DNA of 64,000 bases from Theocolax elegans (Eukaryota > Arthropoda > Insecta > Hymenoptera > Cerocephalidae). The notes below the pieces were generated by a model that saw only the letters and a program-made list of their open reading frames with translations, searched no databases and was not told where the DNA came from. The stretch is taken from positions 12,615,505 through 12,679,504 of the forward strand of contig CM047427.1 of NCBI GenBank assembly GCA_026168455.1, given 5' to 3'. Shown here in pieces: positions 10,950 through 59,193 of the stretch. Position 1 is the stretch's first letter. The number at the start of each line of letters is the position of its first letter. Both the position numbers and the translations under genes were made by a program.

Positions 10950-11286
10950 CCGCCCCCCTTTGGTATACTCGACAAAACGTGCTTTTATTCAATTTAAAAA
11001 GTTTTAGTTGAATAATAGCCGGGAAAGTAAATTGGTTTTAAATGAAATAAGTGCCAGAAAGTTCAACTAATTGCACAAAGGTCCGCGAATTAAAAGATTC
11101 CCGGCGAAACGGTTTCAAAAGAAACGAGGTGGAAGGGCAAAAGAGCAGAGAGGGAGAGGGAAACGCTGCGAATCAAGGGTTATATAGTACATTCAAAAGG
11201 TTTCCTTTTACATTAGGTGCGAATAGTGTCCATCTTCAAAAGGACGAATCAAATATTGAATTAACTTTGCTACACCTGTACATATA

Positions 11287-12505
11287 CAGGGTGTCCGCGA
11301 GCTCCCTTCGCAGTGAGGACGGTGTGCACCAAAAATATTTGTATGTTACTACTTTAATTATAACTATAGTTGTTGCTTTAGCAGTAACAGAGAAACTCTT
11401 TTAGTATGTTACTAATATAGTAACTACTATAGTTATAACTATTTTTTAAACTTAAATTTTAGAAAATATTTTAGTAATAACTATAGTAATTACTATTTCT
11501 ATTATTTTAGTAACATTGATATTAGTATTAACTTTAGTAATTACTATAGTTAAAACTAAAAAAAAAAAACTATTTTTCTTTGCCCTGAAGCAGGCCGATT
11601 TTACGAGCATAGGGTAACCAACGCTAGATGCTAAATGTTAAGTAATTCTTGTAAGATATTCTAAATATTAGTATTAGATTAGTTTTAATTAATTCACCAA
11701 TCCTAGTTATAACCTATAAAATAGATGTTCTTAACCTCAAACCATTAAACTATTAAAATAACGTCAATAATCTCAACATTTCAAAATTAATAAAACACCT
11801 TAGTTTTAATATTTAACACACATACTTTTAACCCCAAATTATTAAAATGATAAAACTACCCTCAACATTTGAAAATTAATAGAAACATGTTATAACGTTT
11901 AAAATATAAATACAAAACTGGTTAAACCTATAAAATAAAAACTCTTAACCTCAAATCTTTAAAAACATTAATATACGGTAAAAAATATTAAAGAAATAAC
12001 AGAAACATTTTAGGTGCAACCAATAAAATAGATGTTTCTAACCTCAAATCGTTAAAAATATTCAAACATCCTAAAAAATATCGAAATTGGAAAATTAATA
12101 GAAATACTCTTATTATAACCTGTAAAATTACTTAAACGAACTGATTGTAACCTATAAAATAAAAATTTATAACCTCAAATCTATAAAATAATTGAACTAA
12201 CGTAGAAAATATCGACATTAAAGAATTAACAGAATCATTATAGTTTCAACCAAAAATAAAAGAAATTTCTAACCTCAAATCGTTAAAATTACTAAAGCAA
12301 CCACAAAAAATATCGAATTTCGTAAATTCGTAGAAACACTCTTATTATAACCTATAAAACTACTAAAACGAACTGATTATGACCTATAAATTAAATATTC
12401 ATAACCTGAAATGTATGATATAATTGAAATAACGTAGAAAATATCAACATTAGAGAATTAACAGAATCATTTTCGTTTCAACAAAAAAAAAAGAAATTTC
12501 TAACC
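11287..12505 (+). repeat. Left inverted arm of the foldback element
   Basis: Pairs with 14416-15633 almost without mismatch. It includes a recognisable single-copy segment, about 11585-11640, between the palindrome-rich outer part and the tandem repeats. An ORF at 11051-11404 that runs into this arm is not supported as a gene. Confidence 0.85.
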
Positions 12506-14130
12506 ATAAATTGTTAAAATTACTAAAGCAACAACAAAAACATCGAATTTGGTAAATCGTAGAAACACTCTTATTATAACCTATAAAATTACTAAAAACG
12601 GTCTGATTATGACCTATAAATTAAATATTCATAACCTGAAATCTATGAAATAATTGAAATAACGTAGACATTATCAATATTAGAGAATTAACAGAATCAT
12701 TTTCGTTCCTACAAAAAAAAAAGAAATTTCTAACCTCAAATCGTTAAAATTACTAAAGCAACCTCAAAAAATATCGAATTTGGTAAATTCGTAGAAACAC
12801 TCTTATTATAACCTATAAAATTACTAAAAACGGTCTGATTATGACCTATAAATTAAATATTCAAAACCTGAAATCTATGAAATAATAAATTTTATAAAAA
12901 AAATAAATTTTTAACCTCAGATTGTTAAAATTACTAAAGTAACCACAAAAAATATCAAAATTTGAAAATTATTAGAAACGCTCTTATTATGACCTATAAA
13001 ATAAATATTTATAACCTCAATTCTATAAAACAATTGAAATAACGTAGATAATATCAGTATTAGAGAATTAACAGAATCATTTTAGTTTCACCGAATGGTT
13101 CTAACTACAAACCGTTAAAATTACTAAAAGAAGCTAAAAATATCGAAATTTGAAAATTATTAGAAACTCTCTTATTATAACCTATAAAATTACTAAAAAC
13201 GGTCTGATTAATCTATAAAATAAATATTTATAACCTCATACCTATAAAATAATTGAAATAACGTACAAAATATCAACATAAAAGATTTAACTGTTTCATT
13301 TTATTTTCAACCAATGGTTGAAACCTCAAATCGCTAAAATTACTACAACAAGCTTAAAAATACCGAAATTTGAAAATTAGTAGAGACACTCTTATTATAA
13401 CCTATAAATTACTAAAAACGGACTGTTTATATCCTATAAAATAAACATTCATAACCTCAAATCTATAAATATTTGAAATAAGGTAAAAAATATCAACATG
13501 AGAGATTTAACAGAACCTTTTTAGTTTCAACCAATAAAATATATATTTCTAACCTCGATTTTTTTAAATTACTAAAATAACCTTAAATATATCAAAATTT
13601 GAAATTCTGTTGAATCACTCTTATTATAACCTATAAAATTACAATAGGTCCGATTATAACCTATAAAATAAATATTCAGAAACTCAAATCTATAAAATAA
13701 TTGATATACTGTAAATGATATTAGAGAATTACAGAAACATCTTAGGTACAATCAATAAAATAGATATTTCAAAACTCAAATTGTTAAAATTATTAAAACA
13801 ACTTAAAAAAATATCACTATTAGAAAAGTAGTTGAAACACTCTTATTATAACCTGTTGAATTATTGTAAACGTTCTGGTTATAACCTAAAAAAAATATTC
13901 ATAATCTCAAATCTATAAAATAATTAAAATATCCTAAAAAATATAAATATTAGAGAATTAGCCGAATCATTTTAGTTTCTATCAAAAAAAAACATATTTC
14001 TAACGTCAAATCGTTAAAATTACTAAAATTACACCCCAAAAATATCTAAATATGTATATGAGTAGAAACACTCTTAATATAATCTGTAAAATTACTAAAA
14101 ATGGCTTGATTATAACCTATAAAATAAATA
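12030..14130. repeat. Degenerate ~230-bp tandem array inside the foldback element
   Basis: The motif AACCTCAAATCGTTAAAATT or a close variant recurs near 12041, 12271, 12505, 12732, 12912, 13103, 13325, 13548, 13773 and 14002. Each is paired with TCTTATTATAACCTATAAAA. Spacing is mostly 180-235 bp. Units differ by many substitutions and small indels, so the array is older than the arm homogenisation. The same units occur inverted at 14130-15000. Confidence 0.8.
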
Positions 14131-14415
14131 TTTTCCAATTTCGATATTTTTTGTGGTTGTTTTTGTAATTTTTACGATTTGAAGTTAGAAATATCTATTT
14201 ATTGGTTAAAACTAAAACGATTCTGTTAATTCTCTAATGTTGATATATTCTACGTTATTTCAATTATTTCATAGATTTCAGGTTATGAATATTTACTTTA
14301 TAGGTTATAATCAGAACTTTTTTAGTAATTTTATAGATTATAATAAGAGTGTTTCTACGAATTTACCAAACTCGATATTTTTTGTGGTTGCTTTAGTAAT
14401 TTTAACGATTTGAGG

Positions 14416-15633
14416 TTAGAAATTTCTTTTTTTTTTGTTGAAACGAAAATGATTCTGTTAATTCTCTAATGTTGATATTTTCTACGTTATTTCAATTATA
14501 TCATACATTTCAGGTTATGAATATTTAATTTATAGGTCATAATCAGTTCGTTTTAGTAGTTTTATAGGTTATAATAAGAGTGTTTCTACGAATTTACGAA
14601 ATTCGATATTTTTTGTGGTTGCTTTAGTAATTTTAACGATTTGAGGTTAGAAATTTCTTTTATTTTTGGTTGAAACTATAATGATTCTGTTAATTCTTTA
14701 ATGTCGATATTTTCTACGTTAGTTCAATTATTTTATAGATTTGAGGTTATAAATTTTTATTTTATAGGTTACAATCAGTTCGTTTAAGTAATTTTACAGG
14801 TTATAATAAGAGTATTTCTATTAATTTTCCAATTTCGATATTTTTTAGGATGTTTGAATATTTTTAACGATTTGAGGTTAGAAACATCTATTTTATTGGT
14901 TGCACCTAAAATGTTTCTGTTATTTCTTTAATATTTTTTACCGTATATTAATGTTTTTAAAGATTTGAGGTTAAGAGTTTTTATTTTATAGGTTTTAACC
15001 AGTTTTGTATTTATATTTTAAACGTTATAACATGTTTCTATTAATTTTCAAATGTTGAGGGTAGTTTTATCATTTTAATAATTTGGGGTTAAAAGTATGT
15101 GTGTTAAATATTAAAACTAAGGTGTTTTATTAATTTTGAAATGTTGAGATTATTGACGTTATTTTAATAGTTTAATGGTTTGAGGTTAAGAACATCTATT
15201 TTATAGGTTATAACTAGGATTGGTGAATTAATTAAAACTAATCTAATACTAATATTTAGAATATCTTACAAGAATTACTTAACATTTAGCATCTAGCGTT
15301 GGTTACCCTATGCTCGTAAAATCGGCCTGCTTCAGGGCAAAGAAAAATAGTTTTTTTTTTTTAGTTTTAACTATAGTAATTACTAAAGTTAATACTAATA
15401 TCAATGTTACTAAAATAATAGAAATAGTAATTACTATAGTTATTACTAAAATATTTTCTAAAATTTAAGTTTAAAAAATAGTTATAACTATAGTAGTTAC
15501 TATATTAGTAACATACTAAAAGAGTTTCTCTGTTACTGCTAAAGCAACAACTATAGTTATAATTAAAGTAGTAACATACAAATATTTTTGGTGCACACCG
15601 TCCTCACTGCGAAGGGAGCTCGCGGACACCCTG
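14416..15633 (-). repeat. Right inverted arm of the foldback element
   Basis: Reverse complement of the left arm, ending GGACACCCTG followed by TATA. Beyond 14416 toward the centre the match to the left arm falls because the two tandem arrays are no longer in register. Confidence 0.85.
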
Positions 15634-15639
15634 TATATG

Positions 15640-17010
15640 TTGATTCGAAACTTTCGACGATCGAAATAGATGATCAATCCTTCTTCCACTAAACGATATT
15701 CTGTGTACGATCCTATTTTTACTGGTTTTCGAGGGCTATTTTATTTTTAATGAAATTATTTTATACGATACTTTGGCTGTTTTCTTCATAAATTCCAAAC
15801 TTTAACTTTTTCTTATATGTATAAGTATGAAACATTATTACATTGCAAAAATTTAATATAATATTTTATCGAATACTCCTAAAAAACTATTTCTTTAAAA
15901 CTAATAAATATTTATTAAAAAACGAAACAATTTTAATTGAAAGAACGGTATCGTATTTGGAACTACAAAATATTTTTTTGCTTTAAAATAATATTTTTTT
16001 TAATAGTGTATTCAATGAAATATCTTTTTGAATTCACTAAATTTTTTTTATCAATCAAATTTTATTTTTTGTCTATTTTCCTCGAATATCAAAATAACAA
16101 TGCCAGCTTAATAATAAAAATCACTTATGTATTTGTTCAGGAAAATAATAAATAACTACTTATTTTTCAGTCAACGAATATATGTGTGTGTATATATATA
16201 CGTATGATCGGCAGATTAGCATTTCGGTTTTTCCGAAAACTTGAATCCTCTTCGACTACCGCAGACTTTCCAGAGCACCGATAATCGGATTTGACTATAT
16301 AAGGGCTCATTTTATTCGTGCAGCATGTGGTCAAGTCATGAATATAGGGATTTATTATAGATAACACAATTTGCCGCTTCGTATTTTCAGTTCATATAAA
16401 CAGAATATAAAAAAGTATTAATAAATAATATTTGTCAATATAGATTTTTAATTTTTTACATCGACCTCGCGTTTAAATTTATATACACAATTTTATCGGA
16501 AATGGAAAGGATTATGCTCGAGAAAGGATATTTCTATATAAGATTTACTTTATATTCTTTTGCATAACGTATTTTCCGTTAGTTGTTGAATTAGTTTCAA
16601 ATAGACTATTAAAACTGTATACACCTCGCGAGATACGTAATATTCTCGACAATCGAGACTAGTCAATTTTGAAACTTTCGTATATATAGCGCAACGTGCT
16701 CAAATATAGATCTAGTGACTTAGGATACCAGTAAGTATTTCCAATAGTATCGGAATTCCAATACCCAACGGTATATACCTCGCGTTATGCATTGCATTTT
16801 CAACTATCTTGAGATCGAAACAAAATTATATATTGCACCATGAAATTTTATAAAGATTTCCGGTTCTTTAATAATACATTATTCTCGTAATGCGATATTT
16901 AGCATTAACAATCTTCTTGTTTAATGGAATAATGTAACGTATACGTTAATTTTAAAATACATTTTATTAAATACATTTATAATACAAAGGTTTATTTTCT
17001 TTTTACAAAA
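15640..17010. other. Intergenic between the foldback element and the DUF4806-like gene
   Basis: No gene or clear repeat. The frames at 15937-16155 and 16167-16367 are low-complexity or short. The gene's 3' untranslated region probably occupies the right edge. Confidence 0.5.
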
Positions 17011-20123: not shown

Positions 20124-21298
20124 CGGTGAAGTATCTGTATAGATGTATAGATGTATATATATATATAGAGATGTATCTCGTGTATCTTATAGCTCTGGGA
20201 CTAACCTCCTGTTTACCTCGGCTTTGTCTCTGTGTAACCTTAGTCTCTCATCTAGTCTACATAGTACCTTCCCGGCTTCGTTTACTATAAGGATCGATTG
20301 TTTTACTCCGCTATATGCGTATATGTATATATCTGTATATGTACGCACACTCCGCAGATTGATGTGTCCAATTTTTCACGTTTTACTTTGCCGTGCGATT
20401 ATTTCGATTTTTATTTCCGATTTTGTACCGAATCAACAATTATTTCATTTATTATATATACGAACTTTTAAGCATAAACGTATAATTATGTGTAAATTCA
20501 AGCTTTAATATAAATATATTATTGTTTTGATACGATACGAACGTTGTTTTTTTTTTCTTGTAACTTTTGTACATATTGTTTTTTTATGTCAATATTTCTT
20601 AGACAATGGTTAAGATTCCAAAAGGTAAAATACAAATCAAATACTAGAATGTGTAGGATCAAGTATATATATAATATTTTTTTTCTTATATAGAGTTTCT
20701 GTATAAGTGTAAAAAAAAATAACTTGATACACTTGAGGTAGGTGAGTGTGTTGTATTCCCCGTTGTTTCAGAAGAAAAAGTAACCCTTAACCAACTGAAT
20801 TCACTTTCTTAAAAGATAAAAAATTTCACTCTCTTAGAAAGATTGTAAAAAGTAAACTTTGATACTTCAAATGAGTACAGGTCATTTGTGTCGCTCGCAA
20901 AAAGTATATTTGTTAAAGGAAAAAAAAGAAAGAAATACACGGCCTGTTATCTAGGTATTATCAACTCACTCCCTCGCGTAAAATAGAAAAAATATCACTT
21001 ACGAAATAAATGCAAAATTGTCAAATTAAGTTGATATTTATAAAAATAAATAGAATGAGCTTGTAAAAAAAGCATCTTTTATCATAGGAACTTGTTTTAT
21101 AAGATATCGGAATTACTAATGTAACTTTTTTAATTGAGACAATGTATTTGAAATATTAACTTAAAAACTGGAAAATATTCACAATAAATATATGCAAAAA
21201 TCTGATGCTATGACTTTTGAAGGAAATTTCATTTGTACAATTATAAGAAAATAAACGTCACTTTGTCGGTAATTTTAAGTTGAACAAACGAGTTTTAA

Positions 21299-21682
21299 CG
21301 GGGTGCCATAGTCAATATTTATCCTCCCTACCTTATCGGCAATCGTGATTATTAGTAATAAATGTGTAAATAAAACAGAATGTGAAAAAATAAGAGAAGA
21401 GGCGCCTTCGTTTATTAATAATCTAACTGTGTGCTGAATTACAGATTAAAATTATATTGCGTTTTTGAGAAAAGTCTTACCAAAAATGTGAACCTAACGT
21501 CAACGAGGTGAAAAGATTTGATATTTTTGGTAAGACTTTTCTCAAAAACGCAATAATATTTAAATGTAAAATTCAGCACACAGTTAGATTGTCAATAAAC
21601 GAAGGCGCCTCTTCTCTTATTTTTTCACAGACTGTTCTACTTTTTTATTAATTAATCATCAAAAATTGAGTATGGAACCCCC
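21299..21682. mobile_element. TTAA-flanked piggyBac-like MITE, copy A (384 bp)
   Basis: TTAA lies at 21295-21298 and 21683-21686. The left end is CGGGGTGCCATAGTCAA and the inverted right end GGGGGTTCCATACTCAA. The interior is a long perfect hairpin: GCGTTTTTGAGAAAAGTCTT pairs with its complement around a short loop near 21500, and GAGAAGAGGCGCCTTCGTTT pairs with its complement. TTAA duplication is characteristic of piggyBac-superfamily transposition. No transposase frame is present. Confidence 0.8.
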
Positions 21683-21969
21683 TTAACGTCAATCCAAAAT
21701 TTACATTCGTGATATTATATCAAACAGCGAAACGTTCAATTTAAAGTAACATAAACTATTAAGCGAAAAAAAAAATACAAAAAAGTGTATTTTTTAAATA
21801 GATAAATACATAAAAATTGAATAGACAATTTCAGGATTCAATATTTTTTTACGTAAAATATTTATTTGTTTTTAATTAAACAACATTTTCCTATTTTTCG
21901 GTAAGAAATCAATGTTGCTTTTATACAGGGTCCATATATAGTCCTTCTTAAGTGAATTCCTTGAACAGT

Positions 21970-36211: not shown

Positions 36212-37290
36212 TGGCATTACTTAACCGACATATTTATAAATTGTAAATTCAAGAGAAAATTGAAGAAGAGATTAAAGAGCCGAGCTTATCGGTAAACTGG
36301 AAAAGTAGACAGAATGTGTGTCGTCTCATTCCTTTTACATCCAAGGGATGTAAGAGCCGGAACTATATATTTCTTCAACTTTGTGCGCGGCTAGTTGGAA
36401 ACCTACCAAGAAACGAGTAGTATCTGTATATGGAGAAACTTTTCAATGATATTCATTTGTATACAATCGTATAGTTAGAATATCAAAATTAAAATTTTAA
36501 ATTATTTTTCTCTTTTGTTCAAATTTTTCGAAAGTATTATTCTTAATTATTTAGAAATACACGTCTTGGTGTCCTATGTGTCCATAAACATTTGAAAATT
36601 ATAATTCAAAGTTTTTTCGTATGTAGGTTGATTAATTTATCTAAAATTTTATAGGATAATTTAATATATAAAAATAAAGGGAGGAATTCAATTAACTTTG
36701 CTAAAATTAACAGTGCATTAAATATAACATAGAAATTATTTAAATGTGTTAAAAAGTTGTATAAACGTTAGCAAAAGTTTAATAAAAATAGAAACATTTT
36801 AATCAGATGTCCTCTCTTCATTTCTACATATTATAATAACCCACAAAATTTCGAGCGGACGCAAGAAAAGTTTGACCTACTATTTTATCTAAATATCGGT
36901 TAAATAGTATACTTTTCACACATATTTAAATGAAATAAACGTACTCGTGATAAGTCGATGAAAATATTAACGTTTTAATAAAATTTTAGACATTTTAATA
37001 TTTCACTTCTAAATAAGTGTTTGGAAATCAGCGTTGAAGCCATTTTCGAGGCTTGGAGGGTTTGCGCACTTACCAGACTGAAGTTACTTACAAACTTAGT
37101 GGACTTCCTATATCGTATAACCCATGCGATAATACACCTGTATTTTTCATTATTAATAGACGTAATCCGATAATAAAAAAAAGTAGTAGTCAAATGAAGG
37201 TGTGCTCGTATTTAGAAACGAGTATGTAGGAATAAATAACAATGTGATTTATCAAATCGGTAGTTGAAAAGTAGCGTTATTCGGTTTTAA

Positions 37291-37345
37291 GGGGGTTCCA
37301 AAGTCAATTTTATGACTGAATTATCGACCTGACGTCGATATAGTA
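37291..37345. mobile_element. Fragment of the TTAA MITE family, copy C
   Basis: TTAA at 37287-37290 followed by GGGGGTTCCAAAGTCAATTT, identical over its first 20 bp to the inverted right end of copy D. The rest is missing. A separate hairpin (37358-37416) follows directly. Confidence 0.55.
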
Positions 37346-37357
37346 GGTTGCATTATC

Positions 37358-37416
37358 AGTATACTACGCCATCTAGCGTACGATTCAAATGATGTCGGTA
37401 GATGGCGTAGTTATAC
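37358..37416. repeat. Hairpin with GCCATCTA arms, 18-bp stem
   Basis: AGTATACTACGCCATCTA (37358-37375) pairs with TAGATGGCGTAGTTATACT (37399-37417), perfect except for one bulged T; loop 23 nt. It sits directly after the truncated TTAA MITE copy C and 140 bp before tandem array 1. Confidence 0.65.
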
Positions 37417-37557
37417 TAACACTGTGATTTGATTTTGTGGAGATAACATAACCTAAGCTTGAAATTTATTCTTTATTGATCAAGAGCCAAAAAAATTTTT
37501 TTTTTCTCTAACTTTGAGAATGTCTTTTTAGCGTGTATGATAAATTCAGGATTGATT

Positions 37558-38795
37558 ACTCATTATAGAGTGGACAATCAGACTTACAGTTCTGTACTTG
37601 CATAGTTACAAGCAATTGAAACTTTTACTCACTATGGAGTGACAACAATTTTAATGAATTGTTCAATTTTTTAATAACTAAAATTAAATATAATAATTAC
37701 GAACTCAAATTATAGAATATCTTAATCCAATAAATGTTTTTTAATAGCGTGTAAGATATTTATAAATAATAATTGTATACTGCTATTTATAATTAAATCA
37801 TTTAAAACATTTTTCTTTTCATCATTTTTTTTATAATCATAAACCTTTTTTAATGCCTTAATCCCATAAATTTAGGATTGATTACTCATTATAGAGTGGG
37901 CAATTAGGCTTACTCACTATGGAGCGACAACAATTTTAATAAACTGTTCAATTTTTTAATAACTTAAATTAAATATAATAACTATGAACAGTTATTAGCC
38001 ATCACTGGGCTTGCGTGAAAAATCCTATTCTATCACTCAAATTATAGAATATCTTAATCCAATAAATGTTTTTTTATAACGTGTAAGATATTTATAAATA
38101 ATAATTGTGTACTGCTATTCATAATTAAATCATTTGAAACATTTTCCTTTTCATCATTTTTTTTATAATCATAAAACTTTTTTATAAATTCAGTTACGTA
38201 CTGAAATATTTTTAATGCCTTAATCCGATAAATTCAGGATTGATTACTCATTATAGAGTGGGCAATTATGCTTACAGTTCTGCACTTGCACAATTACAAG
38301 CAATTGATACTTTTACTCACTATGGAGTGACAACAATTTTAATAAATTGTTCAATTTTTTAATAACTAAAATTAAATATAATAACTACGAACAGTTATTA
38401 GCCATCAATGGGCTTGCGTGAAAAATCCTATTCTATAACTCAAATTATAGAATATCTTAATCCAATAAATGTTTTTTAATAGCGTGTAAGATATTTATAA
38501 ATAATAATTGTGTACTGCTATTTATAATTACATCATTTAAAACATTTTTCTTTTCATCATTTTTTTTATAATCATAAAACTTTTTTATAAATTCAGTTAC
38601 GTACTGAAATATTTTTAATGCCTTAATCCCATAAATTCAGGATTGATTACTCATTATAGAGTGGGCAATTATGCTTACAGTTCTGCACTTGCATAGTTAC
38701 AAATAATTGACACTTTTACTCACTATGGAGTTGACAACAGGTTTAATGAATTGTTCAATTTTTTAATAACTAAAATTAAATATAATAATTACGAC
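37558..38795. repeat. Tandem array 1: ~320-400 bp AT-rich units, about 3.4 copies
   Basis: AGGATTGATTACTCATTATAGAGTG or a near copy starts units at 37558, 37874, 38236 and 38639 (spacings 316, 362, 403 bp). Lengths differ through block deletions: copy 1 lacks the GGGCTTGCGTGAAAAATCC block and copy 2 lacks the CAGTTCTGCACTTGC block. Copy 3 is fullest. Each unit has two small palindromes, ACTCATTATAGAGT and ACTCACTATGGAGT. A partial earlier copy may begin near 37530. No coding capacity. Confidence 0.8.
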
Positions 38796-38869
38796 CACTT
38801 CGAGAATCCAGCATTCAAGCGTTCCTAGTATTGAAAAAAGCACATATGATTAGACTCTTTGACTAGGAA

Positions 38870-40080
38870 CGAGCCCAAGGAACCAGGATGAGCACCATCA
38901 TTAGCTCACTCAGTAGCTGAAGGGTAGTATATCTTCTAGGAGCTGCACCGCGTCCAAGTCTTAGGAATAACAGCACATACTCAGATTGGCTCCGATGATT
39001 GTTGACGGAACAGCAACACGTACTCAGATAGGCTCCGATGATTGTTGACGCCCAGTGCAGGATTTTCTGTGAATATATTAAAAAATCAGACAAAGCAAAC
39101 TACTAAATAATGGTATAATGGGAAACAGGAAGAAAGGACGCATAAAAAGGTATACAATGGCCTGTTGATATCAATTGAGAGGTTAGGGGAACACCAACCT
39201 TCTCCTCTGTAATATAACTATATAAATAACGAAGTGCTCCTACGGATAAGCAACTTACCTGTAAATAAAACCCGGAACTACACGTTAATCCTATAGCGAG
39301 CCGGTATTGAAGAAAAAGCAACACAATGAAGAATCCGCCCGTTGCACCACGTCCAAGTCTGAGGAACAGCAACACGTACTCAGATAGGCTCCGATGATTG
39401 TTGACGCCCAGTGCAGGATTTTCTGTGATATATTAAAAATCAGACAAAGAGGATTTTCTGTGAATATATTAAAAAATCAGACAAAGCAAACTATTAAATA
39501 ATGGTATAATGGGAAACAGGGAAGAAAGGACGCATAAAAAAGGTATACAATGGCCTGTTAATATCAATTGAGAGGTTAGGGGAACACCAACCTTCTCCTT
39601 TGTAATATAACTATATAAATAATGAAGTGCTCCTACGGATAAGCAACTTACCTGTAAATTAAACCCGGAACTACACGTTAATCCTATAGCGAGCCGGTAT
39701 TGAAGAAAAAGCAATACAATGAAGAATCAGCCCGTCGCACCACGTCCAAGTCTGAGGAACAGCAACACGTATACAGATTGGCTCCGATGATTGTTGACGC
39801 CCAGTGCACGGTTTTCTGAGAATATATTAAAAAATTAGACAAAGCAAACTACTAAATAATGGTATACTGGGAAACAGGAAGAAAGGATGCATAAAAAGGT
39901 ATACAATTGCCTTCTGATATCAATTGAGAGGTTAGGGGAACACCAACCTTTTCGCTTGTAATATAACTATATAAATAACAAAGTTCCTCTACGGCTAAAC
40001 AACTTACCTCTAAACAAAATCCACAACTCCACTTTAATCATATAGGGAGCCGGTGTTGAATAAAAAGCACTATGTCATCA
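38870..40080. repeat. Tandem array 2: ~355-395 bp units, about 3 copies
   Basis: GGCTCCGATGATTGTTGACG marks units at about 39031, 39387 and 39780, with an extra partial repeat at 38988. Units share GGTTAGGGGAACACCAACCT, CCTACGGATAAGCAACTTACC and GCGAGCCGGTATTGAAG. Smaller duplications sit inside: a ~43-bp one at 38988/39031 and a ~36-bp one at 39415-39485. The minus-strand frames at 39103-39375 and 39469-39714 are the same repeat read twice. The last copy is the most diverged. Confidence 0.8.
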
Positions 40081-40397
40081 GCAATACAATGTAGAACTCG
40101 TTGACAGATCGGCAAGAAGCGCGAATGTACGCGTATATCGATAGATGACCGCACGGGCGTACGACGTACGCGCGCATCATGTCGATTCCAACGCAATGCG
40201 CATGCGCGCACGGACTAGACGGGTCGGATCACGACCGAGATGAGACACTCGTGAACTTCGTTAAGAAACGTTTTATCATTATATATATTGTTAGTTTATA
40301 ACGGAAAAATTTGTTTATTTCAAATCTTATAAACGTAGCAGCAATATTTTTAATTTTTCTAGATTGACGTGACACACGCGAATTGAGCAACAAATGC

Positions 40398-43300
40398 GAG
40401 TTCGTGGTGCGTGTACGCAGGCGATCGACGGAGCGCACGCACCACGAAGTCCCCACTCTCCATCTAATAATAGACATTCAGTATTCTGGTTATTCTCTTC
40501 GTACTAAAATGCGCCTGTTAATTAATTTACTTTAATAATTAACGTAATCTGAAAATAAAACGTCATTGAATACCGAAAGATTTTTTTTATAATAATCAAA
40601 CGGGTTGAATCGAGCGGTAAAAATGACTTCGTGGTGCGTGTACGCAGGCGATCGACGGAGCGCACGCACCACGAAGTCCCCACAATCCAAATAATAATAG
40701 ACATTCAGTATTCTGGTTATTCCTGCGTACTAAAATGCGCCTGTTAATTAATTTACTTAAATGTTTAACTTATTCAGAATAATAAGACGGCATTGAATAC
40801 CGAAAGATTTTTTTTATAATAATCAAACGGGTTGAATCGAGCGGTAAAAATGACTTCGTGGTGCGTGTACGCAGGCGGTCGACGGAGCGCACGCACCACG
40901 AAGTCCCCACTCTCCAATTAATAATAGACATTCAGTATTCTGGTTATTCTCTTCGTACTAAAATGCGCCTGTTAATTAATTTACTTGAATGTTTAACTTA
41001 TTCAGAATAATAAGACGACATTGAATACTGAAAGATTTTTTTATAATAATCAAACGGGTTGAATCGAGCGGTAAAAATGACTTCGTGGTGCGTGTACGCA
41101 GGCGATCGACGGAGCGCACGCACCACGAAGTCCCCACTCTCCAACTAATAATAGACATTCAGTATTTGGTTATTCTCTGCGTACTAAAATGCGCCTGTTA
41201 ATTAATTTACTTAATGTTTAACTTATTCAGAATAATAAGACGACATTGAATACCGAAAGATTTTTTTTATAATAATCAAACGGGTTGAATCGAGCGGTAA
41301 AAATGACTTCGTGGTGCGTGTACGCAGGCGATCGACGGAGCGCACGCACCACGAAGTCCCCACTCTCCAACTAATAATAGACATTCAGTATTCTGGTTAT
41401 TCTCTTCGTACTAAAATGCGCCTGTTAATTAATTTACTTGAATGTTTAACTTATTCAGAATAATAAGACGACATTGAATACCGAAAGATTTTTTTTATAA
41501 TAATCAAACGGGTTGAATCGAGCGGTAAAAATGACTTCGTGGTGCGTGTACGCAGGCGATCGACGGAGCGCACGCACCACGAAGTCCCCACTCTCCAACT
41601 AATAATAGACATTCAGTATTTTGGTTATTCCTGCGTACTAAAATGCGCCTGTTAATTAATTTACTTAAATGTTTAACTTATTCAGAATAATAAGACGACA
41701 TTGAATACTGAAAGATTTTTTTATAATAATCAAACGGGTTGAATCGAGTGGTAAAAATGACTTCGTGGTGCGTGTACGCAGGCGATCGACGGAGCGCACG
41801 CACCACGAAGTCCCCACTCTCCAACTAATAATAGACATTCAGTATTCTGGTTATTCCTGCGTACTAAAATGCGCCTGTTAATTAATTTACTTAATGTTTA
41901 ACTTATTCAGAATAATAAGACGACATTGAATACCGAAAGATTTTTTTATAATAATCAAACGGGTTGAATCGAGTGGTAAAATGACTTCGTGGTGCGTGTA
42001 CGCAGGCGATCGACGGAGCGCACGCACCACGAAGTCCCCACTCTCCAACTAATAATAGACATTCAGTATTCTGGTTATTCCTGCGTACTAAAATGCGCCT
42101 GTTAATTAATTTACTTAATGTTTAACTTATTCAGAATAATAAGACGACATTGAATACTGAAAGATTTTTTTATAATAATCAAACGGGTTGAATCGAGTGG
42201 TAAAATGACTTCGTGGTGCGTGTACGCAGGCGATCGACGGAGCGCACGCACCACGAAGTCCCCACTCTCCAACTAATAATAGACATTCAGTATTTTGGTT
42301 ATTCCTGCGTACTAAAATGCGCCTGTTAATTAATTTACTTAAATGTTTAACTTATTCAGAATAATAAGACGACATTGAATACCGAAAGATTTTTTTATAA
42401 TAATCAAACGGGTTGAATCGAGTGGTAAAAATGACTTCGTGGTGCGTGTACGCAGGCGATCGACGGAGCGCACGCACCACGAAGTCCCCACTCTCCAACT
42501 AATAATAGACATTCAGTATTCTGGTTATTCTCTTCGTACTAAAATGCGCCTGTTAATTAATTTACTTGAATGTTTAACTTATTCAGAATAATAAGACGAC
42601 ATTGAATACCGAAAGATTTTTTTTATAATAATCAAACGGGTTGAATCGAGTGGTAAAAATGACTTCGTGGTGCGTGTACGCAGGCGATCGACGGAGCGCA
42701 CGCACCACGAAGTCCCCACTCTCCAACTAATAATAGACATTCAGTATTTTGGTTATTCCTGCGTACTAAAATGCGCCTGTTAATTAATTTACTTAAATGT
42801 TTAACTTATTCAGAATAATAAGACGACATTGAATACTGAAAGATTTTTTTTATAATAATCAAACGGGTTGAATCGAGTGGTAAAAATGACTTCGTGGTGC
42901 GTGTACGCAGGCGATCGACGGAGCGCACGCACCACGAAGTCCCCACTCTCCAACTAATAATAGACATTCAGTATTCTGGTTATTCTCTGCGTACTAAAAT
43001 GCGCCTGTTAATTAATTTACTTAATGTTTAACTTATTCAGAATAATAAGACGACATTGAATACTGAAAGATTTTTTTTATAATAATCAAACGGGTTGAAT
43101 CGAGTGGTAAAATGACTTCGTGGTGCGTGTACGCAGGCGATCGACGGAGCGCACGCACCACGAAGTCCCCACTCTCCAACTAATAATAGACATTCAGTAT
43201 TTTGGTTATTCCTGCGTACTAAAATGCGCCTGTTAATTAATTTACTTTAATGTTTAACTTATTCAGAATAATAAGACGACATTGAATACCGAAAGATTTT

Positions 43301-45740
43301 TTTTATAATAATCAAACGGGTTGAATCGAGTGGTAAAATGACTTCGTGGTGCGTGTACGCAGGCGATCGACGGAGCGCACGCACCACGAAGTCCCCACTC
43401 TCCAACTAATAATAGACATTCAGTATTTTGGTTATTCTCTTCGTACTAAAATGCGCCTGTTAATTAATTTACTTAATGTTTAACTTATTCAGAATAATAA
43501 GACGACATTGAATACCGAAAGATTTTTTTATAATAATCAAACGGGTTGAATCGAGCGGTAAAAATGACTTCGTGGTGCGTGTACGCAGGCGATCGACGGA
43601 GCGCACGCACCACGAAGTCCCCACTCTCCAACTAATAATAGACATTCAGTATTTTGGTTATTCCTGCGTACTAAAATGCGCCTGTTAATTAATTTACTTT
43701 AATATTTAACGTAATCTGAAAATAAGACGACATTGAATACTGAAAGATTTTTTTATAATAATCAAACGGGTTGAATCGAGTGGTAAAATGACTTCGTGGT
43801 GCGTGTACGCAGGCGATCGACGGAGCGCACGCACCACGAAGTCCCCACTCTCCAACTAATAATAGACATTCAGTATTTTGGTTATTCTCTTCGTACTAAA
43901 ATGCGCCTGTTAATTAATTTACTTGAATGTTTAACTTATTCAGAATAATAAGACGACATTGAATACTGAAAGATTTTTTTATAATAATCAAACGGGTTGA
44001 ATCGAGTGGTAAAATGACTTCGTGGTGCGTGTACGCAGGCGATCGACGGAGCGCACGCACCACGAAGTCCCCACTCTCCAACTAATAATAGACATTCAGT
44101 ATTCTGGTTATTCTCTTCGTACTAAAATGCGCCTGTTAATTAATTTACTTGAATGTTTAACTTATTCAGAATAATAAGACGACATTGAATACTGAAAGAT
44201 TTTTTTTATATAATCAAACGGGTTGAATCGAGTGGTAAAATGACTTCGTGGTGCGTGTACGCAGGCGATCGACGGAGCGCACGCACCACGAAGTCCCCAC
44301 TCTCCAACTAATAATAGACATTCAGTATTTTGGTTATTCCTGCGTACTAAAATGCGCCTGTTAATTAATTTACTTAAATGTTTAACTTATTCAGAATAAT
44401 AAGACGACATTGAATACTGAAAGATTTTTTTATAATAATCAAACGGGTTGAATCGAGTGGTAAAAATGACTTCGTGGTGCGTGTACGCAGGCGATCGACG
44501 GAGCGCACGCACCACGAAGTCCCCACTCTCCAACTAATAATAGACATTCAGTATTCTGGTTATTCTCTTCGTACTAAAATGCGCCTGTTAATTAATTTAC
44601 TTGAATGTTTAACTTATTCAGAGTAATAAGACGACATTGAATACCGAAAGATTTTTTTTATAATAATCAAACGGTTGAATCGAGCGGTAAAAATGACTTC
44701 GTGGTGCGTGTACGCAGGCGATCGACGGAGCGCACGCACCACGAAGTCCCCACTCTCCAACTAATAATAGACATTCAGTATTTTAGTTATTCCTGCGTAC
44801 TAAAATGCGCCTGTTAATTAATTTACTTTAATATTTAACGTAATCTGAAAATAAAACGTCATTGAATACCGAAAGATTTTTTTTATAATAATCAAACGGG
44901 TTGAATCGAGTGGTAAAATGACTTCGTGGTGCGTGTACGCAGGCGATCGACGGAGCGCACGCACCACGAAGTCCCCACTCTCCAACTAATAATAGACATT
45001 CAGTATTCTGGTTATTCTCTTCGTACTAAAATGCGCCTGTTAATTAATTTACTTGAATGTTTAACTTATTCAGAATAATAAGACGACATTGAATACTGAA
45101 AGATTTTTTTTATATAATCAAACGGGTTGAATCGAGTGGTAAAATGACTTCGTGGTGCGTGTACGCAGGCGATCGACGGAGCGCACGCACCACGAAGTCC
45201 CCACTCTCCAACTAATAATAGACATTCAGTATTTTGGTTATTCCTGTGTACTAAAATGCGCCTGTTAATTAATTTACTTAAATGTTTAACTTATTCAGAA
45301 TAATAAGACGACATTGAATACCGAAAGATTTTTTTTATAATAATCAAACGGGTTGAATCGAGTGGTAAAATGACTTCGTGGTGCGTGTACGCAGGCGATC
45401 GACGGAGCGCACGCACCACGAAGTCCCCACTCTCCAACTAATAATAGACATTCAGTATTTTAGTTATTCCTGCGTACTAAAATGCGCCTGTTAATTAATT
45501 TACTTTAATATTTAACGTAATCTGAAAATAAACGTCATTGAATACCGAAAGATTTTTTTTATAATAATCAAACGGGTTGATTCGAGTGGTAAAATGACTT
45601 CGTGGTGCGTGTACGCAGGCGATCGACGGAGCGCACGCACCACGAAGTCCCCACTCTCCAACTAATAATAGACATTCAGTATTTTGGTTATTCCTGCGTA
45701 CTAAAATGAGCCTGTTATTTAATTTGCTTAAATGTTTAAC
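40398..45740. repeat. Tandem array 3: 24-copy, 226-227 bp satellite with an embedded perfect hairpin
   Basis: The core GACTTCGTGGTGCGTG...CACGCACCACGAAGTC recurs 24 times from 40400 to 45598 at 226-228 bp spacing. In nearly every copy the two 16-nt arms are exact complements round a 22-nt loop with CGATCGACGG. The first core lacks the outermost base pairs and copy 3 has one loop change. The core is GC-rich; the rest of the unit is AT-rich (CTGTTAATTAATTTACTT, GATTTTTTTTATAATAATC). Copies are mostly above 95% identical by eye. The first copy is joined to different sequence at its left, and the last decays after 45710. The unit is not a multiple of three, so no long frame exists; the ~60-codon minus-strand frames starting MSII are shadows of it. 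Confidence 0.95.
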
Positions 45741-45949
45741 CTATAAACATAAAAGTTTTGTTTCATGATCCCTGTGTGTGCATATCAATATGTTTGCACG
45801 TCCAATCGACAACTTTGAAAAAAGTTGACTGTTTGCCATGCAGCCGACAGTCTAAGATGGCGGCTGCTGCGCTCGCGTAACCTTCGTATCTTTCTACCGC
45901 TAGCGCCACCGAACGGTAATTTATGGCGTAAGATTTTATTTTGTTACTG

Positions 45950-46311
45950 TTGCGGTATCAAAGTCTACTATTTTTTTTAATGTACTGAATATATTTATGA
46001 GTACACTTCCCTTCGTATATGAATAAGTTAACTATGTACAAAGTTTGAGACAAAAATATTATTTCGTTTGTATTTAATCCCTTACCAAAAATGTGAGACG
46101 GGCGCAGCATACTCAAAATTTTTGGTAAGGGTTTAAACATAAACGTGATAATTTTGCTGTCCCAAATTTTGCACACACTTAAATAATCCATATACGAAGG
46201 GCAATGAACTCTTATTTCTCCGTAAAATAATATAATTATCTAATTATAATCGATTATTTGATTTACTCAGTCGATAAGGTAGGGAGGATAAAAATTGACT
46301 TTGGAACCCCC
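45950..46311. mobile_element. TTAA MITE family, copy D (~360 bp)
   Basis: The right end TTGACTTTGGAACCCCC is followed by TTAA at 46312-46315. The inner hairpin pairs CCCTTACCAAAAATGTGAG with its complement, and CCCTTCGTATAT with ATATACGAAGGG. The left end near 45950 (GGTATCAAAGTC) is diverged and has no clear TTAA. It starts some 200 bp right of the satellite array end. An ORF across it (45958-46191, minus) is a shadow. Confidence 0.65.
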
Positions 46312-46315
46312 TTAA

Positions 46316-49300
46316 TTAAAGGAAAAACACGAAAACCGTGTAACATTATATTGTTTTAATGAATTAAGTTAATTACTTTATTTCCATAATCGCTGGTTCC
46401 TTCTCTTTCTGGTTTATTTTAAGTCTTACGTGGCGCTCTAATAGGCTAAAATAATTATCCCTTTTATCTGTACTACTAAAACTCTTACAATCTCCCTGTT
46501 GAACTTAAAATTTTGTTTTACTATTAAAGCTGTTGTGTGTGTCGGTGTAGCATTAAAACTTGGATAATTAACCAAATATATTGGATAGTATTTGCTTGCA
46601 TTTTCTAACAGGAATTTTTAAATTTTGAACGAAGAATTTATCATCGAAACGCAAGTATATGTATAACTCAATCGCATTATCGTGAAAGCTTCGAATTTGT
46701 AGTGTACTGTGAGCGTGTGTGCGTATATATAAAGGTAGATGCGCGATAGCTCAACCTCTTCACAAATTGAGTACGGAACATTTTGATCGAGTTTAACTCG
46801 ATACATTATCAAATCAAAGAATTACAATCAAGCCAACGTGGTATATTCAATTTGTTTGTTTACCATTTTCTATTTCGTATTAATATAAAAGAAACGGATG
46901 AGTTTTCTTATTCTCCGTCAATTTGTCAAACAACAGAAAAGAACGATATACAATTCAAGTTTTTAGAATAGTAAAATGTTATGCATATACATATTAGAGT
47001 TGTTTAGTGTAAGGAGTTGCGTCAGACTTTCTGGTTTGCTCTTGCACATAGATTTTTTCAGATTTTTAATGTAATTGTTGGATTATCGTTAGTATACATT
47101 TTATTACTCAACATGAGTAATGATAAGTTCTTTAATAAAACAAATTATTTTTTTCCTCAAAATTTTGCTGCGTATATTTCTCAGATTTTTCATTTAATAA
47201 GTTAAATATTAATTTCTGTATTGAAAGGTGGATCCTTATACCTTGAGTTTGACATTCTCTTAATTATCCCGCATTTGAAAAACGATCTTTAAATTTCGTA
47301 AATGAAATAAACGAAATTATTTATCCCGTCTAACAAGTTTTACCTCGTGTCAATCGAAATTCAAAAACTGAATATTCATCAAAACTTGATGGAAACACGA
47401 AAAAAGGATGTGTGTTGTATACATTGTAAATCTAAAGAAGAAAGAAAGAAGGAACGCAGAGTAAAGTTAGGCAAGTCCACCCTGAGAGAAAGAGAGGTAA
47501 GAACAAGAGCCCTGCGTGACACACCTGCCCTCCTCAGAGAGATATAAATCGAGACGATTTCCGCGCGTGTACACGAGAGCATTTCGGTCTTCTATATACA
47601 TACACCTATAGGCAAAAGAGATCCGTGGCGTCTCGAGAGAGGATCTCGGCAGCAGCAGACGTTTTACCGACGATTGCCTCGCTCGAGCTAGTTTAACGAT
47701 GCCTTCTCACTCTCTCTCTCTCTCTCTTTTTTCTTTCTCTTTCTCTCTCGCAGGTTTTCCAGTCGTCTCTTTACCGGTGAAATCCGAATGCGTCGAGTCG
47801 TGCGCGCATAAAGCGATGCGACGCTTAGTTGCCCCAAAACTGCCGGGAAATTGCGCGGATAAAACGGACTAGCGGGAGATTTTTATGTCTATCGTGTATT
47901 AAACTTGAGTAGCTATGCACTGTACTTTTCTTTTCTTCCTCTATTTGCAGTGTATGCGACTCCTCACCTATATCTACATTTATAATACTACTAAAATTTA
48001 TACTTGGTACGACTGAACATTTGAATACGAAATTATAATTGTACACTTATTGTCAATTTATTCATGAATTCAACTAAATTTGCGAAGATCTCGAAAATAA
48101 AATCGATAGTATTTTATTTAGTCAAATTGTAATGTTTATCTTGATATTTATACAGAAATTCATCAAATTGTAAGGTAGCCGGTATGTTGTCAATAAGCAT
48201 TTATATTTAATAAAATTATTCTAAAACTATATTTTAGTCAATAATTAATTCCATTAAAGAATAATTAATTTTTTTGTTTTAGACTTTCAAGATGAAAAAG
48301 CGTAGTATTTCATTTAATTACCCTTATTCGTCGAAAATTGCCCTGAATAACATTTTGTATTTAATTATTTATACCCCACGGATAATCGTATCCCTTTTGC
48401 AATTTCCTCATGGTGAAAATTTCCTCCATTTTAAGAAAATTACTCACGAGCTTGTAAATCTTGTAATAATGGGTTACTAACAGCTTATTCCTGTTTTCAT
48501 CATTTAATTTATAAAATACAGAAGAAAAATATTATAAAGATAAGAGTCTCGTGTGTAATTCTAGACGTTGCGCGTGATGCGCCGACGCTTTTACAACAGT
48601 CGTAAAACATGCCAAGTCGTAAATATGAAAATATCACAAAATATCTTGGAGTAACAGTCAAAGGATTGATTTCTTTTTTCATAAAACTACAAATATTTTA
48701 AAATGTCACGTTTGCCTTCGAGACATTACAATAACGGTAGATCATGCAAATTTGAATAAATATACAAATATGAATTGATAACCCTGGTAGAAATGGAATA
48801 TCTAGAGGTTAGTTGAAACCATTTTTCGGTCATAAATTACCCACTTATAGGGTATTTTTGGTCAAACGACTAGTTTTAAGCGAAAAAATCGTTTTATAAA
48901 TCCTCTGATTTATACTAAGAAAGTTGCAATGTTTATTAATTAATTTTAATACTGTTTCATTAATATTCAATGTACATAGAGCGTTAACTATAATAAAAAG
49001 TGCGATTTATCTAAATTAATGATTGTAAAATAATTTGTTTATTTATATTGTGAATGTTAACCGCTTTTAACTATTTATTTATATGAAATGATTAATGATA
49101 AAGTTGAAAAAGTTTTTACGAGCCCTAATACTTGTGATTTATGATAAGGTAGAGGTTAGCAAGGTTCCTCGTTAACAGTAGAATCCATAGACATTGTCCT
49201 TTTAGAGGAGAATCGTAAATGTGGACATTAAACTAGAGGATTCGTGAGGACATAAGCATAGCTCAGACACCATCACTGTAAAGTTGAATTCACCAACTGG

Positions 49301-59120: not shown

Positions 59121-59193
59121 GTACATATAGCCAAGTGCTAAGGCAACTGCCCGGTAAGCAGGAGACCGTCGGTTCGATCCCGACCTGGGGACG
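59121..59193 (+). pseudogene. tRNA-like sequence (tRNA pseudogene or SINE head)
   Basis: The stretch contains an A-box-like TAGCCAAGTGCT and a perfect B box GGTTCGATCCC at tRNA spacing. It folds a D arm (GCC/GGC), an anticodon arm with a 7-nt loop CCGGTAA (GGT at the anticodon position, usual U33 missing) and a perfect 5-bp T arm (GTCGG/CCGAC). The acceptor stem does not pair: 5' GTACATA against 3' CTGGGGA. One anticodon-stem pair is also mismatched. A T run (about 59197-59203) follows. The lost acceptor stem and odd anticodon loop argue against a working tRNA. A decayed tRNA copy or the head of a tRNA-derived SINE fits better. Confidence 0.55.

What the first reader, a model, noticed from the sequence alone, without database searches (positions are those of the whole stretch)
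40398..45740. 24-copy satellite whose every unit carries a GC-rich hairpin in an AT-rich body
Each ~227-bp unit has 16-nt arms (GACTTCGTGGTGCGTG and its complement) round a 22-nt loop. The arms stay perfectly complementary in almost all copies while the AT-rich body drifts. That is what one would expect if the stem is under structural constraint, or if homogenisation is strong. Insect satellites can make small RNAs (for example tapiR in Aedes), and hairpin RNAs feed Dicer-2 in flies. I infer, but cannot show, that this array may be transcribed into hairpins or bound by a protein.
Basis: partly seen in the sequence, partly recalled or inferred. Interest (0 to 1): 0.8.

Follow-up and report, generated by a model that had tools for sequence, protein, structure and literature searches.

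The report
Hairpin satellite riding inside a transposon
The 24-copy hairpin repeat is not a free-standing satellite but the largest of three tandem arrays packed inside a 9-kb mobile DNA element that has many copies in this genome; satellites carried by transposons are known from frogs, flies and oysters, and no RNA or protein role of the hairpins is shown.

Summary
In detail: 23.6 tandem copies of a 226-bp unit (40401-45744), 24 hairpins, 23 of 24 with perfect 16-bp arms. The copies examined (20 left ends, 39 right ends) stop at the same two points, at a 21-bp terminal inverted repeat (GGGGGTTCCAAAGTCAATTTT) flanked by TTAA; one copy has GTAA on both sides, so the 4 bp are a target duplication. 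The genome holds 216 exact TIR ends and 2,326 near-exact hairpins; facing TIR pairs on C1-C3 span 2.4-20.2 kb. No coding sequence was seen, so it is non-autonomous, probably Kolobok-type (TTAA target, purine ends); its autonomous partner was not found. In 104 units from 11 arrays the arms vary less than the body (4/32 against 68/173 columns), but only the left arm is exceptional, no compensatory change occurs, arms decay singly in older copies, and the best body 16-mer is as frequent genome-wide as an arm. Structural selection is not shown; transcription could not be tested. A new member of a known kind: tandem-repeat-carrying DNA transposons (Xenopus Xmix/Xstir, Drosophila Tetris).

The parts
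37287..46315 (+). whole non-autonomous DNA transposon including both TTAA target duplications (9,029 bp)
   Evidence: 20 of 20 upstream loci lose homology (matches over 250 bp) at 37284-37288; the 39 non-self right-flank matches among the 40 scored (of 1,228 first-look candidates) end at 46315-46328
37287..37290 (.). left target-site duplication TTAA
   Evidence: TTAA before the left end in 19 of 20 loci L017-L036, GTAA in L035
37291..37311 (+). left terminal inverted repeat GGGGGTTCCAAAGTCAATTTT
   Evidence: 216 exact TTAA+TIR ends genome-wide, control 0
37910..38794 (+). first internal tandem array, 403-bp period, 2.2 copies
   Evidence: copy number varies among element copies
39003..40069 (+). 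second internal tandem array, about 356-393-bp period
40398..45744 (+). third internal array: 226-bp hairpin satellite, 23.6 copies, 24 hairpins
   Evidence: edges identical in other copies
40625..40678 (+). example hairpin (unit 2): 16-bp arms 40625-40640 and 40663-40678, 22-nt loop; one of 24 at 224-228-bp spacing
45996..46214 (.). imperfect 219-bp palindrome (75-77% self-inverse) in the right subterminal region
   Evidence: self-inverse matches q262-480; a similar palindrome lies in the short element 21295-21686 (by eye)
46291..46311 (-). right terminal inverted repeat
46312..46315 (.). right target-site duplication TTAA
   Evidence: TTAA after the right end in 19 of 20 loci L049-L068, GTAA in L067, the copy whose left side (L035) is GTAA too

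Best explanation
The array is the variable internal satellite of a young, non-autonomous, TTAA-targeting DNA transposon family, most likely of the Kolobok superfamily. Shown: common ends, TIRs, target duplication, many dispersed copies (the best 40 flank matches are 97-100% identical), no coding sequence seen, variable array length, and the same array edges in every copy looked at. Inferred: a transposase made elsewhere cuts and pastes the element by its TIRs; the array, founded once, moves with it as cargo; between moves it grows and shrinks by slippage or unequal exchange, which a strong palindrome in each unit would favour. The hairpin's excess conservation most likely reflects recent amplification plus palindrome self-correction, or sequence constraint on a protein-binding palindrome, rather than a selected RNA.
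For: Boundaries. TIR and TTAA on both sides, GTAA on both sides of one copy at C6:43.95-43.97 Mb (L035/L067). 216 exact TIR ends, control 0; 31 adjacent facing pairs on C1-C3 span 2,432-20,195 bp. 16 of 16 hairpin clusters among the first 100 exact hairpins listed (all on C1) lie 0.46-17.7 kb from an exact TIR, where +-20 kb round TIRs covers at most 1.2% of C1. Left array junction the same in 9 of 9 arrays of the unit sample that hold it (7 with GAG, 2 with GAC at the edge) and right junction the same in 6 of 6. Within-array distance 0.040 against 0.048 between, 0 of 500 label shuffles as low; seven first units differ by 0.041 among themselves and by 0.044-0.085 from their own arrays. In the element no ORF over 90 aa from a start codon, none over 109 codons stop to stop, no Pfam hit in that longest one.
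Against: No autonomous partner found: of 58 piggyBac-domain hits on C1-C3 the nearest is 20.0 kb from an exact TIR (only 116 hits were scored of 2,841 first-look candidates); of 62 THAP-domain hits on C1-C3 the nearest is 11.9 kb away. So the superfamily rests on TSD and end bases. Some arrays have no exact TIR near: C1:32.38, 40.99, 41.07-41.09 Mb, and body words at 45.78-45.79 and 51.83 Mb, are over 1.2 Mb from one: decayed elements or free arrays. The cause of array growth and of hairpin conservation is not shown.
Confidence: 0.88

Rival explanations
1. The hairpin palindromes are arrayed binding sites for a protein, for example extra sites for the transposase, as shown for the THAP domain of Galileo in the tandem repeats of its long TIRs. 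Selection on mobility would conserve the sequence of the arms without requiring RNA pairing.
For: Left arm exact in 104 of 104 non-boundary units while the loop varies like the body (8 of 22 against 68 of 173 columns); none of 227 windows of 54 columns is less variable than the hairpin. Precedent: PMC3688188 (passages), PMC4079207 section 19.
Against: TIR and unit share no significant ungapped match (39 of 300 shuffles as good). The right arm alone is ordinary. Sites lie inside, up to kilobases from the ends, in one internal block. The best body 16-mer is as frequent genome-wide as an arm.
Confidence: 0.25
2. The array is transcribed and its hairpins feed a small-RNA pathway (siRNA, piRNA or tapiR-like), the stem being kept for pairing.
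For: Stable fold on both strands, z -5.5 and -6.3; 6 of 8 changed right-arm letters (3 of 4 columns) are C to T, which keep G-U pairs on the + strand.
Against: No compensatory change in 111 units; 23-24 unpaired exact arms among 100 listed; no Rfam match in the array; a 16-19-bp stem is short for a Dicer substrate (recalled). C to T is also a common neutral change (recalled).
Confidence: 0.08
3. Neutral: the hairpin looks conserved only because the sampled arrays are young and palindromes correct themselves by template switching.
For: Loci were the best matches and hence young; within-array homogenisation; arms change singly elsewhere; the right arm and the best body word are not set apart.
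Against: Arms vary less than loop and body in the same units (4/32, 8/22, 68/173); exact 54-mer in 73% of units for the hairpin against 22% for the best body stretch; near-exact 54-mers genome-wide 2,326 against 510 for a conserved body stretch, though indels in the body lower the latter.
Confidence: 0.5
4. The element is a piggyBac-type rather than a Kolobok-type transposon.
For: TTAA target; 116 piggyBac-domain matches scored in the genome, of 2,841 candidates.
Against: Ends begin GGGGG, not the CCC usual for piggyBac (recalled); none of 58 scored piggyBac hits on C1-C3 lies within 20 kb of an exact TIR.
Confidence: 0.25

Closest known systems
Xmix/Xstir (T2-MITE, Kolobok superfamily, Xenopus)
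   Same: TTAA target, purine-purine ends, no transposase gene, internal segment amplified into tandem repeats that ride on the element (PMC6004289 passages; PMC12628747 passages)
   Different: T2 ends are AGGRR, here GGGGG; three different arrays and spans to 20 kb here; 226-bp unit with a GC-rich hairpin
Tetris / TIR-220 (Drosophila virilis)
   Same: non-autonomous DNA transposon with variable internal repeats of about 220 bp that seed satellites (PMC4079207 abstract and section 19)
   Different: Tetris is a foldback element with the repeats inside long TIRs; here the TIR is 21 bp and the array is single and internal
Galileo (P superfamily, Drosophila)
   Same: tandem repeats in a transposon, there shown to bind the transposase THAP domain (PMC3688188 passages)
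   Different: no binding shown here, no long TIRs, different target duplication (recalled)
Helentron-borne satellites of the Pacific oyster
   Same: short satellite-like arrays dispersed by a non-autonomous element (PMC7492417, title and abstract start in the listing)
   Different: rolling-circle element without TIR or target duplication (recalled)

Membership tests
TIR DNA transposon (class II) | terminal inverted repeats at fixed ends | tested here: met
   21-bp identical ends
TIR DNA transposon (class II) | target-site duplication | tested here: met
   TTAA in 19 of 20 left and 19 of 20 right flanks; the exception is one copy with GTAA on both sides
Kolobok superfamily | TTAA target site | tested here: met
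   definition from PMC6004289 passages
Kolobok superfamily | RR terminal bases | tested here: met
   ends are GG
Kolobok superfamily | autonomous relative with DDE/THAP transposase and the same TIR | tested here: inconclusive
   113 THAP-domain hits (150 of 187 candidates scored); of 62 on C1-C3 the nearest is 11.9 kb from an exact TIR; 100 of 216 TIR places were listed
T2-MITE family | AGGRR terminal motif | tested here: not met
   GGGGG
piggyBac superfamily | DDE_Tnp_1_7 transposase flanked by the same TIR | tested here: inconclusive
   58 scored hits on C1-C3, nearest 20.0 kb from an exact TIR, but 116 of 2,841 candidates were scored
Foldback / Tetris type | long TIRs containing the tandem repeats | tested here: not met
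   TIR 21 bp; one hairpin array, in the interior
hairpin-RNA or satellite small-RNA locus | transcript and phased small RNAs | not testable with these tools
   no read data; Rfam negative for the array
structured RNA under pairing selection | compensatory base changes | tested here: not met
   0 in 111 units

The most novel reading that the evidence does not exclude
The element gains mobility or copy number from its arrays: each unit's GC-rich palindrome is a selected transposase- or host-factor-binding site, making the satellite a selfish transposition or replication enhancer whose length tunes the element's success, so that satellite growth is adaptive for the transposon.
Probability: 0.15. 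Interest if true: 0.65.

Novelty: new member of a known kind. Interest (0 to 1): 0.36.

Why it matters
It shows a satellite being dispersed by a young transposon family, with many element copies that differ in array length. That is natural material to ask how satellites are born from transposons and whether palindromes drive their growth. It also corrects the reading of the array as a stand-alone functional satellite.

Tried and rejected
tRNA or known RNA in the array: ARAGORN 0 in the window, Rfam 1 match, elsewhere. Autonomous partner in 4.5-kb TIR pairs: 1,001 and 801 bases from the middle of two such spans are again the second array (and, in one, the start of the hairpin array), not coding. 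Long minus-strand frames in the second array (109 codons in the window; a related one of 152 in L070): no Pfam match for the window frame; the L070 frame was not searched. Shared motif between TIR and unit, or hairpin and second array: not above shuffles (39 of 300; 58 of 200). Ten frames of the window against Pfam, to place the organism: 0 of 10 hit; the organism is not identified. Papers: the listings show no insect Kolobok-type element with such arrays, but these are keyword searches of an open-licence library and prove nothing about print at large. Classical free-standing satellite: set aside because the array has fixed edges inside an element.

Full report
Observation. The window holds 23.6 tandem copies of a 226-bp unit at 40401-45744, 96% matching. 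There are 24 arms on each strand, and 23 of 24 hairpins have perfect 16-bp arms; the odd one is unit 1, at the array edge, one base off. Hairpin G+C is 0.649, body 0.296. The 54-nt RNA folds at -33.3 kcal/mol (z -5.5; 0 of 200 shuffles as good), the reverse strand at -33.4.

Surroundings. A DNA search with unit 1 gave 569 matches in the 658-Mb genome, on several chromosomes. A search with the left flank (39844-40400) gave 40 full-length matches of 97-100% (40 scored of 303 candidates), and with the right flank 40 of 98-100% (40 scored of 1,228), itself included. The 39 non-self right matches end at 46315-46328, and all 20 upstream stretches fetched lose homology at 37284-37288. So the array lies inside a 9,029-bp repeat, 37287-46315.

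Ends. The repeat begins TTAA-GGGGGTTCCAAAGTCAATTTT and ends with the inverse. TTAA stands outside the left end in 19 of 20 loci L017-L036 and outside the right end in 19 of 20 loci L049-L068. The exception on each side is the same copy, with GTAA on both sides (L035, L067), which is what duplication of a 4-bp target gives. The 25-mer TTAA+TIR occurs 216 times exactly, reversed control 0; 100 places were listed. On C1-C3, where the list runs to the end (91 ends), 31 adjacent facing pairs under 30 kb span 2.4-20.2 kb.

Contents. Three tandem arrays fill most of the element: 403 bp, about 356-393 bp, and the 226-bp hairpin array, plus an imperfect 219-bp palindrome near the right end. There is no frame longer than 109 codons inside it, and that one has no Pfam match. 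It is therefore non-autonomous. TTAA with RR ends is the signature given for Kolobok (PMC6004289, passages). Of 58 scored piggyBac-domain hits on C1-C3 none lies within 20 kb of an exact TIR, but only 116 of 2,841 candidates were scored. Of 62 THAP-domain hits on C1-C3 the nearest is 11.9 kb away. The partner remains unknown and the superfamily is an inference (about 0.6 for Kolobok).

Is every hairpin array in such an element? Of the first 100 exact hairpins listed, all on C1, 16 of 16 clusters lie 0.46-17.7 kb from an exact TIR. But the wider arm list shows arrays at C1:32.38, 40.99 and 41.07-41.09 Mb, and the body word places at 45.78-45.79 and 51.83 Mb, all over 1.2 Mb from an exact TIR. 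These are older copies with decayed ends, or free arrays; not resolved.

Conservation. 111 units from 11 arrays were aligned. The loci were the best matches, hence biased to young copies. Seven first units, marked by the edge base, were dropped for the column counts, leaving 104. Variable columns: left arm 0 of 16, right arm 4 of 16, loop 8 of 22, body 68 of 173; arms against body Fisher p 0.004, arms against loop 0.05, loop against body 1.0; units are not independent. With all 111 units: arms 5 of 32, body 70 of 173, p 0.009. No 54-column window of 227 is less variable than the hairpin, and 3 of 227 window pairs at the arm spacing are as low as the arms; but the right arm alone is ordinary, 78 of 227 sixteen-column windows being as low or lower. 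As exact 16-mers the left arm ranks first of 212 words (104 of 104 units), the right arm 24th (95), the best body word has 103 and the median body word 51. Over the 111 units 95 stems are perfect, 6 have a G-T pair and 10 a mismatch or gap, 7 of these being array-edge units. No pair changed on both sides. Genome-wide, near-exact 54-mers number 2,326 for the hairpin and 510 for a conserved body stretch, but indels depress the latter. Exact 16-mers number 4,178 for both arms together and 2,115 for the best body 16-mer (reversed controls 0 and 1), so an arm is not more frequent than the best body word. In the first 100 arm places, 38 exact pairs stand against 23 arms without an exact partner and one more at the end of the capped list whose partner may lie beyond it; some of these are array edges. 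The hairpin is well conserved as sequence; pairing selection is not shown.

Dynamics. Distances within arrays average 0.040, between arrays 0.048 (0 of 500 label shuffles as low). The left array junction is the same in 9 of 9 arrays of the sample that hold it (GAG in 7, GAC in 2) and the right junction in 6 of 6, the window included. Seven first units differ by 0.041 from each other but 0.044-0.085 from their own arrays. The array was present in the ancestor, moved as cargo, then changed length locally. Slippage or unequal exchange helped by the palindrome is the likely route (inference; stem-loop models for MITE-borne repeats are reviewed in PMC12628747, passages).

Comparison. Satellites on non-autonomous transposons are known: Xmix/Xstir in Xenopus, Tetris TIR-220 in D. 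virilis, Helentron arrays in oyster. This is a new family of that kind as far as the papers seen here go. The binding-site idea has precedent in Galileo but no support here from a shared TIR motif.

The junction counts, THAP distances and distances of TIR-less arrays were added or corrected, and the capped piggyBac search moved that membership row to inconclusive.

Noticed in passing
window 21295-21686: A 392-bp palindromic MITE with TTAA flanks and similar ends (CGGGGTGCCATAGTCAA / GGGGGTTCCATACTCAA); by eye its subterminal TTTATCCTCCCTACCTTATCG and inner TTACCAAAAATGTGA palindrome match the right end of the big element, so the two are probably relatives.
   Followed up: partly
window 11280-15640: Foldback-like structure: inverted arms of about 1.5 kb, 97.8% alike (11280-12788 and 14130-15640), with 232-bp tandem repeats inside the arms.
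   Followed up: partly
window 39106-39432: Minus-strand open frame of 109 codons in the second array; a related 152-codon frame in L070; no Pfam match for the window frame.
   Followed up: partly
window 59128-59184: tRNA-like match in Rfam (35.9 bits, model 8-63 of 71) that ARAGORN does not call: perhaps a tRNA relic.
   Followed up: no
L019:836: A related TIR (TTAAGGGGGTGCCAAAGTCAAGTTTTATCC) 6 kb upstream of one element copy: perhaps another family with similar ends.
   Followed up: no
L033:5220 and 7086; G000 C2:70254422 and 70256416: Two left ends in the same direction about 2 kb apart, in L033 with the same 14-base flank, as if the left part of the element was duplicated with its flank.
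   Followed up: no
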